64,000 nt of DNA from Candidatus Woesearchaeota archaeon (GTDB taxonomy: Archaea; Nanobdellota; Nanobdellia; Woesearchaeales; GW2011-AR9): NCBI GenBank assembly GCA_945861715.1, contig CAMAVK010000003.1:67344-131343 (forward strand), given 5' to 3'. The notes under the pieces were generated by a model, which was not told the origin of the DNA, searched no databases, and saw nothing but the letters and a program-made list of their open reading frames with translations. Each line of letters opens with the position of its first letter. The first letter of the stretch is position 1. Both the position numbers and the translations under genes were made by a program. This document shows positions 1 to 7,194 of this stretch, piece after piece.

Positions 1-1062
1 CGAAACGACACAGCAATCAAAGAAACAAATCTCGTAGAAGAAGTTCTAACCAAAAACGAGCTTTGTAAGCAAAATGTAGCCACTTTATTTCAACAGCGCA
101 ATCAAATCGCAGCAACCTGGGCTCTAGAATCTGTGATGGAAAATCCAACGAGTATCGCATCTTATCGTGCAGCACTCCACGCGCTTCCACTAAACGCAGC
201 TTCGAGAGAAACAATACTTAAGGAGGTACTTCAACAATACCTCATACCAAACAATAATTGTGTAAGCCCAGAGCATTTGCAAACGCTCACATCCATTTTA
301 AATGTATACGCGAGAGCCAAACGTACCTATGACAAAACAAAAGATTTTATTTTTGAATACAATCAGCGTCTCGTTATCTCAATAGCAAGAAAGTATCTTC
401 ATCGAGGTCTTGATTACCTCGATCTCATTCAAGAGGGTAATGACCGAATGTTGCATGCTATGGAAAAATATGACCTCAATCGAGGAAATAAATTTAGTAC
501 TTATGCTACTTGGTGGATTCGTCAAGGTATAACAAGAGCCATTGCAGACCAAGGAAGAACGATACGAATTCCAGTTCATCTCTGCTCAAAATATAATGCT
601 CTTAATCAATTTACTAAAAACTATCGCAATGAGCATGGTCACAACCCATCTCCTGAAGAGGTCATGGCTGCGTTACATCTAACAAAAATAGCGTATGCCG
701 GGTTAACCCAAAATAATCCCACCTCATTACAGACAAAAATAGGTGATGATGACGGAGCGGAGTTAGGAAATCTTCTAGATGGAACAAAACCAGAAATGGA
801 GGGATTTGGAAAAATTCGAAGACCTGATGAAGCAGATCCTGAAAATTCCGGTGGTTTCAACGAAGTGATGGACCGAGCAGATTTAGACCCTCGGCAAAGA
901 CGAGTTCTAAGTTTACGTTTTGGGTCAGAAGGTGTTGATCACACCCTCGATGAAATAGGCCAGCTATTCGATCTCACCCGTGAACGGGTCCGTCAAATCG
1001 AAAAAAAAGCACTCGAGAAATTACAAAGAGCCTACGCAAGAGAAAGTTCGAAATCAAAATAA
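1..1062 (+). CDS. Sigma-70 family RNA polymerase sigma factor, 5' partial
   Basis: Bacterial-type primary-like sigma factor, which would direct RNA polymerase to promoters. The frame is open to the left window edge, so the GTG/ATG near 133 is probably internal and the N-terminus is missing. Counting from the edge, region 2 shows the 2.2 motif LIQEGN and the 2.3-2.4 block STYATWWIRQ plus ADQGRTIRIPVH. Region 3 follows (NPSPEEVM), and region 4 has LDEIGQLFDLTRERVRQIEKK, the classical -35 recognition helix-turn-helix, of which only part is quoted here: DLTRERVRQIE. All three core domains look intact. Archaea normally use TBP/TFB, and this window is full of TATA promoters. Complete sigma factors have been reported in a few uncultivated archaea from single-cell genomes. 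Whether it binds the archaeal polymerase is unknown. Confidence 0.93.
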   Translation, partial: RNDTAIKETNLVEEVLTKNELCKQNVATLFQQRNQIAATWALESVMENPTSIASYRAALHALPLNAASRETILKEVLQQYLIPNNNCVSPEHLQTLTSILNVYARAKRTYDKTKDFIFEYNQRLVISIARKYLHRGLDYLDLIQEGNDRMLHAMEKYDLNRGNKFSTYATWWIRQGITRAIADQGRTIRIPVHLCSKYNALNQFTKNYRNEHGHNPSPEEVMAALHLTKIAYAGLTQNNPTSLQTKIGDDDGAELGNLLDGTKPEMEGFGKIRRPDEADPENSGGFNEVMDRADLDPRQRRVLSLRFGSEGVDHTLDEIGQLFDLTRERVRQIEKKALEKLQRAYARESSKSK

Positions 1063-3537: not shown

Positions 3538-4083
3538 CTATACTCGTTTTTTCCCGCCCAATATTTTCCTCAATTCATCCCACTGATCTGCTGCAACAAT
3601 ATACCCCACACAATTAGCCTTCCCACACTTGCATGGATGCTCAGCATAATGTTCTAAATCATATCCATAATTATAACCTAGCTCTTCCCCAAGCGAAATA
3701 TTTCGTAGTGCAACAACCCAAATCTTTCCCTCTTGAACAGACGACTCACAATTTCCATCGCATGAATGATTAATCAATCGAGCAGGATTCCACTCCACAT
3801 TCCCATCAATATCCCATGTATCATCAAGTTCAAAAATATATACTGCACCTAGCGACGGGTCTTTTTTCGCCATAGAAATTGCGCGCAGTGCCCTGCGAGT
3901 AGACTCCTTTTTTCGGATTTTATCCCCCACATACTCAATAATCCGCTCACCCTTCTTAATCGCGCGTGATGCAAATACTCCAGAGCCATGAATAGAAGAC
4001 GAAGAAATAGAAATGGATGAGGTGTCAAGATTGCTTGATTCAATAATTTCGATAGTTCCCTCTCCTCTATTATTTTGTGTCAT
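3538..4083 (-). CDS. SET-domain protein (predicted protein-lysine methyltransferase)
   Basis: 181 residues, nearly all SET domain. Visible motifs are GSGVFASRAIKKGE (N-terminal SET strand), RLINHSCDGNCES (the NHS cofactor/knot motif), EELGYNYGYD (the ELxxDY-like motif, here with Asn before Tyr) and a post-SET zinc motif PCKCGKANCVGYI near the C-terminus. SET enzymes transfer methyl groups from S-adenosylmethionine to lysines. Targets in archaea can be chromatin proteins or many cytoplasmic proteins. A complete post-SET is more typical of eukaryotic-type enzymes. The first 30 residues are Ser-rich and look disordered. It is divergent from the next gene, with no partner nearby. Confidence 0.9.
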   Translation of the reverse strand: MTQNNRGEGTIEIIESSNLDTSSISISSSSIHGSGVFASRAIKKGERIIEYVGDKIRKKESTRRALRAISMAKKDPSLGAVYIFELDDTWDIDGNVEWNPARLINHSCDGNCESSVQEGKIWVVALRNISLGEELGYNYGYDLEHYAEHPCKCGKANCVGYIVAADQWDELRKILGGKKRV

Positions 4084-4710: not shown

Positions 4711-4722
4711 TATTTATATAAT
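4711..4722 (+). promoter_or_regulatory. TATA promoter of the thr leader / thrS transcript
   Basis: A/T-rich box TATTTATATAAT preceded by an A/C-rich BRE-like stretch. Its centre is about 26 bp upstream of the leader-peptide ATG at 4743, the spacing seen at many leaderless promoters in this window. Transcription should therefore begin at or next to 4743 and leave a leader of about 226 nt before thrS. Confidence 0.75.
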
Positions 4723-4742
4723 CCCTCCTACTCGCAACTAAA

Positions 4743-4799
4743 ATGTCTCAACTAAATCAGACAGTAACAATCAGTACTACTACTTCTACTACTCGTTAG
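4743..4799 (+). CDS. Threonine-rich leader peptide upstream of thrS
   Basis: An 18-codon ORF that begins at the predicted transcription start and ends in TAG. The peptide is MSQLNQTVTISTTTSTTR. Seven of its 18 residues are Thr (two ACA, five ACT), five of them clustered in the last seven codons (TTTSTT then Arg). Position, length, composition and the hairpin-forming sequence right after the stop match amino-acid attenuator leaders such as the Thr-rich peptide of the enteric thr operon. Here it precedes threonyl-tRNA synthetase. The likely role is to sense charged tRNA-Thr through ribosome stalling. The function is an inference. Confidence 0.72.
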   Translation: MSQLNQTVTISTTTSTTR

Positions 4800-4800
4800 A

Positions 4801-4843
4801 TTGGGCCCTTCATTTCGGTTCCGCCCACCAAAAGAGAACCCAA
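4801..4843 (+). promoter_or_regulatory. Mutually exclusive hairpins following the leader ORF (putative attenuator)
   Basis: Begins one base after the leader stop codon. TGGGC (4802-4806) can pair with GCCCA (4823-4827). GGTTC (4817-4821) can pair with GAACC (4836-4840). TTGGG (4801-4805) can also pair with CCCAA (4839-4843). The first two stems are interleaved and so exclude each other as simple hairpins. A ribosome at the leader stop would cover 4800-4812 and block the first stem, while one stalled on the Thr codons would not. No T-run follows before thrS, so simple intrinsic termination is unlikely. The remaining 125 nt to thrS are A/C-rich and look unstructured. Confidence 0.55.
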
Positions 4844-4968
4844 AATAATATGATTTGTCAGTAAAGACAACCAGTAAAAAGCAACATACATAAAAAGACA
4901 AAACTGTAACCCCCAAGAATAATCTAAATTAACACAAAAAAGAATACACAAACTAACAAGGTGAAATC

Positions 4969-7194
4969 ATGAAAATCTTAGCAGTTCACGCAGACTATAT
5001 TGAATATCAAGCAACAAAAAAAGCCCTCAAAAGCGCGGAAGCAAACATCAAAGAAGAAATGGAACGAGTCGAAGAATGCCTCGTCATCTTCACAAGCGTG
5101 GAAAAACGCGACGAAGGACATAGAGAAATCGTGCTTGAACAATATCAACAAGAAGTGGATAAAGTTGCAGATCAAGTCAAACCAAAAAACATCGTTGTCT
5201 ACCCCTACGCGCATCTCTCATCCAGCTTAGCAAGTCCGCAATACGCCGAGGAATTTTTGAAAGCCGCAGAAAAAAAACTCAGCGTTAAATACAACGTATA
5301 CCGCGCACCATTTGGCTGGTACAAAGCCTTCACCATCAAATCAAAAGGACACCCCCTCTCCGAACTCAGTAGAGAATTTGGCCAAGGAGAAAATATTCCA
5401 TCTGTAAACAAAGCATCACCTGCGGAAAATACACCAGCTTCAACAAACCTCAAACGAGAATCTAAGGATGAACTATTTGAAATCAACAATAAAGATCTGA
5501 GCGTTGAAGAAAAAATAAATCTAACCGCAGCCCTTCTCACCGGCGCAGCCATACAAGAACTCTTTGTAGAAGCAAAGATAGGTTCCATCGGATTCTACCA
5601 CAACCAAACATATGTAGATATCACTGGTGTAAAAATAAAATCAGATGACCTCGAGCGAATCCAAAAACACGCATTGAAGCTTGCACAAAAAGGCACATCC
5701 ATCGAAAAAGTAGTAGCACCAACACACGAATTACAAAAACAAATAGCGCAAGACCTCAAAAAAGATGCATACACCTATCAACTCAGCAAAGTAGAATGCG
5801 TCCCAACCTATGCCAACCCATTCATCGCAAACACCAAGGAAATTGGAGCGTTAAAACTCCTCTCCCTCTCCAGTGCCTATTGGAAAAACAATGCAAGCAA
5901 CCTTCAACTCATACGAATCAACCTCGTAGGCTTCAGAACCCAAGAAGAGTTAGAAAAATTCCAAAAAGAGAAAGAGGATCAAGAAAACAGATCCCACATC
6001 AAGATTGGAAAAGAACAAGGACTCTTCATCATTTCCGAGTTAGTAGGTCCCGGTCTACCTCTGATTGCACCAAAAGGAATGATCATCCGAAATGAAATAA
6101 CGAGCTACCTTTGGAGTCTCCATAAAGACAAAGGATACCAACAGGTGTGGACGCCACATATTGCAAAAACGGAACTCTACAAAACATCCGGCCACTGGGA
6201 TAAATTTGGTGACGAGCTATTCAAAGTCAAAGGAAAAACGGATGACTTTGTCATGAAACCTATGAACTGTCCGCATCACATGCAGATTTTTGACGCATTT
6301 AATCACAGTTATCGTGACATGCCAATACGTTTCTTCGAACCAGCAACCATCTATCGAGATGAAAAATCAGGACAGCTAACCGGCCTCTCACGAGTTAGAG
6401 CCATCACCCAAGACGACGGACACCTATTCTGTCGAACAAGTCAAATAAAACAAGAAGTAAAAACCATCGTAGGCATCATTCACGAATTCTATGCAACTCT
6501 TGGAATGGACAAAGATTATTGGGTATCCCTAAGTGTGAGGGGTGATGACAAATCGAAATACTTAGGCGAAGATGCAGCATGGAATCTCGCAGAAACGAGT
6601 TTGGAGGAAGCGGCAATTGAAAACAAATTACCCTATAAACGTATTCCTGGTGAAGCCGCGTTCTACGGACCAAAACTCGACTTCATGTTTAAAGACGCAC
6701 TCGGGCGTGAGTGGCAACTTGCAACCATTCAATGTGATTTTAATCTTCCAGAACGTTTCAACTTAAGTTACATGAACGAAGAGGGCAAAAAAGAACGGCC
6801 TGTCGTAATTCATCGAGCAATCTCAGGGTCACTCGAACGCTTCCTCTCTATCTTAATTGAACATCACGCAGGAAAATTCCCATTATGGCTAAGCCCAGTT
6901 CAAGTCAAAATCGTAACTGTAACCGATCGCAACGTACCATTTGCTCGTGATTTAAAAGATGCTCTCCAAAAGCACGGTATCCGTGTTGAAGTTAATGAAG
7001 ATCAAGAGACAATAGGGAAGAAAGTTCGCGACGCTCAAATGGAAAAAGTAAATTACATCGTAACCATTGGGGACAAAGAAATGGAAAAGAACTGTCTTGC
7101 CATAAGAACAAGAGCTGGCGATGTTAAATTCGAAGTAAACATAGCAGATTTCATCAAAGACCTCAGAACAGAAATCGACACCAAAAAGAATTAA
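4969..7194 (+). CDS. thrS: Threonyl-tRNA synthetase, archaeal/bacterial chimera
   Basis: 741 residues, about 100 more than usual. It charges tRNA-Thr. Residues 1-135 are the archaeal DTD-like editing domain (MKILAVHADYIEY, ending GHPLSELSRE), which removes mischarged Ser. A linker follows to about 184. Residues 185-340 align by eye with the bacterial N2 editing domain (AKIGSIGFYHN, SSAYWKNNASN), but its HxxxH motif reads LTAALLTGAA and its C-x-H region reads PTYANPFIAN, so the catalytic residues are gone. The catalytic core is bacterial in style (GKEQGLFIISE, PMNCPHH with the zinc Cys near 434, VIHRAISGSLERF). The anticodon-binding domain starts near 640. The start has the strong site AGGTGA, unlike the leaderless genes around it. 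Confidence 0.96.
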   Translation: MKILAVHADYIEYQATKKALKSAEANIKEEMERVEECLVIFTSVEKRDEGHREIVLEQYQQEVDKVADQVKPKNIVVYPYAHLSSSLASPQYAEEFLKAAEKKLSVKYNVYRAPFGWYKAFTIKSKGHPLSELSREFGQGENIPSVNKASPAENTPASTNLKRESKDELFEINNKDLSVEEKINLTAALLTGAAIQELFVEAKIGSIGFYHNQTYVDITGVKIKSDDLERIQKHALKLAQKGTSIEKVVAPTHELQKQIAQDLKKDAYTYQLSKVECVPTYANPFIANTKEIGALKLLSLSSAYWKNNASNLQLIRINLVGFRTQEELEKFQKEKEDQENRSHIKIGKEQGLFIISELVGPGLPLIAPKGMIIRNEITSYLWSLHKDKGYQQVWTPHIAKTELYKTSGHWDKFGDELFKVKGKTDDFVMKPMNCPHHMQIFDAFNHSYRDMPIRFFEPATIYRDEKSGQLTGLSRVRAITQDDGHLFCRTSQIKQEVKTIVGIIHEFYATLGMDKDYWVSLSVRGDDKSKYLGEDAAWNLAETSLEEAAIENKLPYKRIPGEAAFYGPKLDFMFKDALGREWQLATIQCDFNLPERFNLSYMNEEGKKERPVVIHRAISGSLERFLSILIEHHAGKFPLWLSPVQVKIVTVTDRNVPFARDLKDALQKHGIRVEVNEDQETIGKKVRDAQMEKVNYIVTIGDKEMEKNCLAIRTRAGDVKFEVNIADFIKDLRTEIDTKKN

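What the first reader, a model, noticed from the sequence alone, without database searches (positions are those of the whole stretch)
4711..4969. Thr-rich leader peptide and switchable hairpins upstream of thrS: a likely attenuator in an archaeon
Seen: a TATA box places transcription start at the ATG of an 18-codon ORF whose peptide (MSQLNQTVTISTTTSTTR) has seven Thr; one base after its stop begins a set of mutually exclusive stems; thrS follows 170 nt later with its own strong ribosome-binding site, although most neighbours are leaderless. Known: bacterial thr and other operons use such leaders to couple ribosome stalling at scarce-aminoacyl-tRNA codons to downstream expression. Inference: Thr-tRNA shortage controls thrS by leader translation. 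No T-run follows, so the output may be factor-dependent termination (aCPSF1/FttA type), RNA stability or thrS translation. I know of no established leader-peptide attenuation in archaea.
Basis: partly seen in the sequence, partly recalled or inferred. Interest (0 to 1): 0.93.

Follow-up and report, generated by a model that had tools for sequence, protein, structure and literature searches.

The report
Amino-acid-sensing leader peptides in archaea
Upstream of the threonyl-tRNA synthetase gene of this archaeon lies a tiny threonine-rich gene; relatives carry the same kind of tiny gene, spelled in threonine, valine or leucine, in front of the matching gene, so it is probably an amino-acid sensor of a kind so far known only from bacteria.

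Summary
The leader ORF is real (4743-4799, MSQLNQTVTISTTTSTTR, seven Thr), with a TATA box 30 nt upstream and thrS 169 nt downstream with its own Shine-Dalgarno sequence. It is the most Thr-enriched of 2,081 short ORFs in 956 upstream regions of the genome. Relatives are decisive. I found Thr-rich leaders before thrS in eight families of the order (36 loci), before thrA (three; two mix Thr with Met codons) and before a threonine-synthase gene (one). The same genomes carry Val-rich leaders before valS (four) and Leu-rich leaders before leuS (three), but none before other tRNA-synthetase genes examined. Of 38 Thr leaders, 37 have a TATA box about 30 nt before the ATG. CATTG follows the stop codon in 30 of 47, and U4 tracts follow in 34 of 38. 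A hairpin with the stop codon in its loop shows compensatory changes. The window's own copy lacks that hairpin and the U-tract, and its drawn stems are no better than shuffled sequence. Best reading: ribosome stalling at scarce codons controls the gene, probably by preventing premature termination. A 2021 paper states that no transcription attenuation was known in archaea (PMC8448881). Nothing has been tested experimentally.

The parts
4713..4721 (+). TATA box of the leader promoter (TTTATATAA), 30 nt before the leader ATG, placing the transcription start near the ATG
   Evidence: sequence; the same spacing (28-33 nt in nearly all, up to 38-40 in two) in 37 of 38 Thr leaders
4743..4799 (+). 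leader ORF MSQLNQTVTISTTTSTTR*, 18 codons, probably leaderless
   Evidence: equivalents in relatives
4776..4793 (+). Thr codon cluster ACT ACT ACT TCT ACT ACT, the presumed stall site; the TTSTT core recurs in other families
4809..4815 (+). TTCATTT, 9 nt after the leader stop, resembling the conserved post-stop motif YTCATTG of relatives
   Evidence: CATTG in 30 of 47 leaders, shuffled mean 1.0, maximum 5; the window copy is an imperfect match
4801..4843 (+). alternative short stems (4802-4806/4823-4827; 4817-4821/4836-4840; 4801-4805/4839-4843); not supported beyond chance
   Evidence: no conserved counterpart (G000 p = 0.21)
4959..4964 (+). Shine-Dalgarno sequence AGGTGA of thrS
4969..7194 (+). 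thrS: threonyl-tRNA synthetase, archaeal editing domain plus a core also close to bacterial (Patescibacteria) enzymes

Best explanation
The element is a leader-peptide regulator of thrS. Transcription starts at or next to the leader ATG (inferred from the TATA spacing), ribosomes translate the short ORF as a leaderless message, and the run of Thr codons measures charged tRNA-Thr. With enough Thr the ribosome reaches the stop and leaves; in most relatives the last codons then pair with the sequence just after the stop to form a hairpin with the stop codon in its loop, followed by CATTG and U-tracts where transcription ends, intrinsically or through aCPSF1/FttA. When charged tRNA-Thr is short the ribosome stays on the Thr codons, covers the 5' arm, and the polymerase reads through into the gene, which is translated from its own ribosome-binding site or, in family f10, may also have its own promoter. 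Shown by comparison: the ORF, its promoter position, the residue-gene match, the hairpin with covariation in relatives, the motif and U-tracts in relatives. Inferred: translation, stalling, termination and the direction of the response. In the window's own copy hairpin and U-tract are missing, so its output step is open.
For: Conservation at the cognate gene: 36 thrS leaders in eight families, 3 of 3 f34 genomes with this thrA and one at a shikimate-kinase/threonine-synthase fusion. Residue matches the downstream enzyme: Val before valS (4), Leu before leuS (3), named by NCBIfam for six of the seven; two thrA leaders mix Thr and Met, both made from homoserine. Negative controls: no leader at ileS, metS, serS, proS, hisS, trpS or pheS/T of the same genomes, nor at other aspartokinases. 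Thr is spelled with four synonymous codons (ACT 101, ACA 92, ACC 24, ACG 3) and 220 of 304 codons at positions -2 to -9 are Thr. TATA about 30 nt before the ATG in 37 of 38. Stop-codon hairpin in 16 of 18 leaders not used to propose it (sum 231 against shuffled 91.8, sd 11.1), with both-side changes in 4 of 6 pairs. CATTG in 30 of 47; at least one U4 tract within 60 nt in 34 of 38. The window copy, f34, valS and leuS genes behind leaders mostly use Shine-Dalgarno sequences, as expected of a message with a 5' leader.
Against: The window copy has neither the stop-codon hairpin (p = 0.21) nor any U4 tract, and its fold is not special. Most thrS genes of the same family have no leader. No expression, ribosome-profiling or 3'-end data were available. 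The U4 excess over shuffles is modest (1.55 against 0.97 per locus), because these regions are AT-rich. The function of CATTG is unexplained.
Confidence: 0.78

Rival explanations
1. Translational control: leader ribosomes change access to the thrS ribosome-binding site, or couple translation, and transcription is not terminated.
For: The window copy has no U-tract or stop-codon hairpin, a 169-nt spacer and a clear Shine-Dalgarno sequence; f34, valS and leuS genes behind leaders also have one.
Against: No pairing of the leader with the thrS start appears in the window's minimum-energy fold. In most f10 loci the gene has its own TATA box and no Shine-Dalgarno, so there is no ribosome-binding site to mask. 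U4 tracts follow 34 of 38 leaders.
Confidence: 0.25
2. An RNA operator bound by the synthetase itself (tRNA mimicry, as in E. coli thrS); the ORF is incidental.
For: A hairpin follows or overlaps the ORF end in most relatives.
Against: ORF frame, promoter spacing and residue identity are conserved while codons vary; thrA and threonine synthase, which are not tRNA-binding enzymes, have the same leaders; the hairpin loop is the stop codon, not an anticodon-like loop.
Confidence: 0.04
3. Chance: a low-complexity ACT repeat that happens to lie before thrS.
For: Single short ORF; other Thr-rich short ORFs exist in the genome, one of them before an orphan gene.
Against: Top of 2,081 upstream ORFs for Thr; 17 sense against 1 antisense hits at thrS; repeated at cognate genes in many genomes, with Val and Leu versions.
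Confidence: 0.02

Closest known systems
Ribosome-mediated attenuators of bacterial amino-acid operons (E. coli thr operon leader, Rfam Thr_leader; leu and ilv leaders)
   Same: Short ORF rich in codons of the regulated amino acid, placed before the cognate biosynthetic gene; here too thrA, with a second related amino acid in the codon mix.
   Different: Archaeal TATA promoter and leaderless ORF; one hairpin holding the stop codon instead of a demonstrated terminator/antiterminator pair; U-tract termination of archaeal type; no Rfam match. Main targets are synthetase genes.
pheST leader (pheM) of E. coli
   Same: Leader-peptide control of an aminoacyl-tRNA synthetase gene (from general knowledge).
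   Different: Bacterial, Phe, classical terminator; no Phe leader was found in these archaea.
pyrBI-type attenuation of E. coli
   Same: A ribosome close behind the polymerase simply keeps a terminator hairpin from forming (from general knowledge); the stop-codon hairpin suggests the same logic.
   Different: The signal there is UTP and polymerase pausing; here presumably tRNA charging.
T-box riboswitches
   Same: Control of synthetase genes by tRNA charging.
   Different: T-boxes bind tRNA directly and have no ORF; no T-box match.
aCPSF1/FttA-dependent termination at U-tracts in archaea (PMC8716108, PMC11616081)
   Same: Candidate output: aCPSF1 binds RNAs with two U4 tracts (PMC8716108); 20 of 38 leaders have at least two.
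   Different: Known as a general 3'-end machinery, not as a regulated, translation-sensing switch.

Membership tests
Ribosome-mediated leader-peptide attenuator | short ORF enriched in codons of the amino acid made or used by the downstream gene | tested here: met
Ribosome-mediated leader-peptide attenuator | leader translated; ribosome stalls when the amino acid is scarce | not testable with these tools
   frame conservation and promoter position are consistent; needs ribosome profiling
Ribosome-mediated leader-peptide attenuator | RNA hairpin whose formation depends on ribosome position | tested here: inconclusive
   stop-codon hairpin with covariation in most relatives, absent in the window copy
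Ribosome-mediated leader-peptide attenuator | competing antiterminator and terminator structures | tested here: inconclusive
   stems can be drawn in the window but are not better than shuffles; relatives show one conserved hairpin, no demonstrated competitor
Ribosome-mediated leader-peptide attenuator | termination signal between leader and gene | tested here: inconclusive
   U4 tracts in 34 of 38 Thr leaders, none in the window copy
Rfam Thr_leader and other described RNA families | covariance-model match | tested here: not met
   no match to a leader or riboswitch family in the window leader region (E up to 5) and none at gathering threshold in ten relative loci
T-box riboswitch | specifier loop and T-box sequence | tested here: not met
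   no T-box match
E. coli thrS-type translational operator | tRNA-like stem-loops bound by ThrRS near the ribosome-binding site | not tested
   no binding data; hairpin loop is a stop codon and targets include non-synthetases

The most novel reading that the evidence does not exclude
Members of an archaeal order regulate a set of genes (thrS, valS, leuS, thrA, threonine synthase) by translation-coupled transcription attenuation: leaderless leader peptides rich in Thr, Val or Leu, a hairpin carrying the leader stop codon in its loop, a conserved post-stop CATTG motif and U-tract termination. This would be the first attenuation regulon known in archaea.
Probability: 0.6. Interest if true: 0.95.

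Novelty: new variant of a known kind. Interest (0 to 1): 0.92.

Why it matters
[quoted passage not shown] A family of leader peptides whose repeated residue matches the downstream enzyme makes the question directly testable: it would show functional coupling of ribosome and RNA polymerase used for regulation in archaea, and supply natural reporters for it. It also points to amino-acid sensing in small, probably host-dependent archaea.

Tried and rejected
RNA-family search of the window leader and ten relative loci: nothing relevant. Consensus folding of a MAFFT alignment gave no pairs, because loop lengths differ; stop-anchored and equal-length comparisons were used instead. Pairing between the post-stop motif and the gene's start codon was considered by eye and dropped: no consistent pattern and no statistical test. 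An outer helix between Thr codons and CATTG looks plausible in families f10 and f34 only and was not tested. Val or Leu leaders in the window's own genome: none. Thr leaders outside the order: none in 14 usable thrS loci of other orders in the class. Most threonine-synthase genes have no leader (1 of about 26). Weak profile hits with E above about 1e-3 were mostly coding or low-complexity sequence.

Full report
Where it is. The window lies in a 1.30 Mb genome of eight contigs (G000). Its thrS relatives are Woesearchaeota and other DPANN-type archaea, with a core domain also close to Patescibacteria. The family labels f1, f10 and so on are those of the genome search tool.

The observation. The 18-codon ORF at 4743-4799, the TATA box at 4713-4721, the Shine-Dalgarno sequence at 4959-4964 and thrS at 4969-7194 are as described. 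I joined the genome from stretches, predicted 1,310 genes and listed 2,081 short ORFs in 956 upstream regions; the thrS leader is the most Thr-enriched. The stems are not special: z = +0.39 for the whole leader and -1.18 for the post-stop segment.

Relatives at thrS. Most orthologs in the same family have no leader, and many have a TATA box close to the thrS start. Several have an unmistakable equivalent: G042 MSARSKFNKLFISFILAIIITTTSNATTTTS, G015 MVLMRSFFSTITTTITTA, G018 MALTKQSVGTTTTTTVTTA, G003 MLSQLILISTFLTTISTTTTTLTSS, G008 (...YLVATTTTTA). Other families follow the same pattern, for example f10 G168 MANIVLLLLDIIFNTTSTTSTTTTTA and f34 G159 MISDFFENIVDFVILLTTVTTTTTTS. The distribution is close to two-state: among 110 thrS loci not already counted, a relaxed search gave only one further plausible case, G028. 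A Thr-tail criterion gives 17 sense and 1 antisense hits in 125 windows. A sequence-only profile built from nine leaders found 18 further thrS leaders, most in f10 and f34 but also in f32 and f58. That search is biased towards sequences like its training set. In G018, G008 and G174 another short gene lies between leader and thrS.

Other threonine genes. The same profile hit upstream of an aspartokinase/homoserine dehydrogenase gene in G159 and of a shikimate-kinase/threonine-synthase fusion in G164. The three f34 genomes found with this thrA all have a leader: MHSVEALKTGISLTTSTTTTTTTC, MKTIEVKNISILMTTSMTMATTC and MNIIEVQNYNISLAFSTMMTTMTTTC; the last two mix Thr with Met. The other 27 aspartokinase loci have none. 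Other threonine-synthase genes have none.

Other amino acids. I examined 84 synthetase loci of leader-bearing genomes for leaderless ORFs with a residue bias or the post-stop motif. Val-rich leaders precede valS: G159 MYLVSGIFSVVVA, G155 MYSLYQTLIVIVVS, G158 MYQLFKTVSVVVV, G077 MISQQQTKSTAVVVVV. Leu-rich leaders precede leuS: G159 MNLQPNLLLILLI, G155 MIKYKILVLLL, G158 MNLKFLLILLN. NCBIfam names the genes valine- and leucine-tRNA ligase for six of the seven; the G155 valS gene was assigned by its PF00133 match and its start only. With the motif criterion, 11 of 13 hits lie before the cognate gene; the two exceptions are L459 (not a residue-biased ORF) and L470 (before a GAPDH-like ORF). With bias alone, some Leu-rich ORFs at other loci look like background. 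IleRS, MetRS, SerRS, ProRS, HisRS, TrpRS and PheRS genes have none. The window's own genome has only the Thr leader at the synthetase genes examined.

Anatomy. In 37 of 38 Thr leaders a TATA box lies about 30 nt before the ATG, so the leader message probably starts at its ATG. Of the eight codons before the final one, 72% are Thr, using four synonymous codons; stop codons vary (TAA 26, TGA 7, TAG 5). A hairpin pairs the last codons with the sequence right after the stop, leaving the stop codon in the loop. I noticed it in the first 17 leaders and tested it on the next 18: 16 have p below 0.05 and the summed score is 231 against 91.8 (sd 11.1) for shuffles. On six gap-free sequences, 97% of cells pair, four of six pairs change on both sides, and sliding the partner destroys it. 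A second set with four-base loops also shows compensatory changes. These sequences were chosen because they fit the hairpin and are related to each other, so the numbers are not formal probabilities. CATTG lies within 23 nt of the stop in 30 of 47 leaders (shuffled mean 1.0, maximum 5). U4 tracts follow in 34 of 38, two or more in 20. The window copy lacks hairpin and U-tract; G015, G018 and G003 also lack the U-tract. Downstream genes come mainly in two forms: Shine-Dalgarno without TATA (much of f1 and f34, thrA, valS, leuS) or TATA without Shine-Dalgarno (most of f10).

Mechanism. The codon-gene matching is hard to explain without amino-acid sensing by translating ribosomes. The hairpin, U-tracts and published properties of archaeal termination (aCPSF1 binds two U4 tracts, PMC8716108; coupling may exclude aCPSF1, PMC8116511) favour control of premature termination: a ribosome held on the codons covers the 5' arm of the hairpin. 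Translational control is the main rival, and for the window copy it is as plausible.

Comparison and novelty. It works like bacterial leader-peptide attenuation, but membership in a described family is not shown: no Rfam match, no demonstrated terminator/antiterminator pair, no expression data. PMC8448881 states that no attenuation or antitermination mechanism was known in archaea in 2021; my searches of the held literature found no later report, but that library lacks most subscription journals and preprints.

Noticed in passing
window 133-1062 (+): A 309-aa sigma-70 protein (Pfam regions 2, 3 and 4) in an archaeal genome. Sigma-70 genes are reported as prevalent in Woesearchaeota (PMC8204110).
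   Followed up: partly
G000 C3:11042-11107 (L190, outside the window): A second Thr-rich, probably leaderless ORF (MKQNVVAIRYFSSTTTTTTSY) before an orphan 219-aa protein without Pfam match. G015 has the same arrangement (MRQNVVESLNNFLTTTTTTSC; downstream protein 77% identical), and the spacer between looks conserved.
   Followed up: partly
L084 (Gracilibacteria, JAMOOA010000164.1), about 520-580 nt before the match: A bacterial thrS with leader MLAQLVTTTTTTSLTRGIC followed by a hairpin and T-run, looking like a classical attenuator.
   Followed up: no
window 4969-7194: Hybrid ThrRS: archaeal editing domain joined to a core also close to Patescibacteria enzymes, suggesting gene transfer.
   Followed up: no
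thrS loci of family f10 (e.g. L241, L243, L016): A second TATA box 29-32 nt before the thrS ATG without a Shine-Dalgarno sequence, as if thrS also had its own leaderless promoter behind the leader.
   Followed up: partly
47 leaders, up to 23 nt after the stop: The CATTG motif after the leader stop is shared by Thr, Val and Leu leaders; its role is unexplained.
   Followed up: partly
L470 (G231): Leaderless ORF MITDLHNKFDFTSYFYM followed by TCTCATTG, before a GAPDH-like ORF that precedes a TyrRS-like gene; possibly a Tyr leader.
   Followed up: no
window 3538-4083 (-): SET-domain protein in an archaeon.
   Followed up: no
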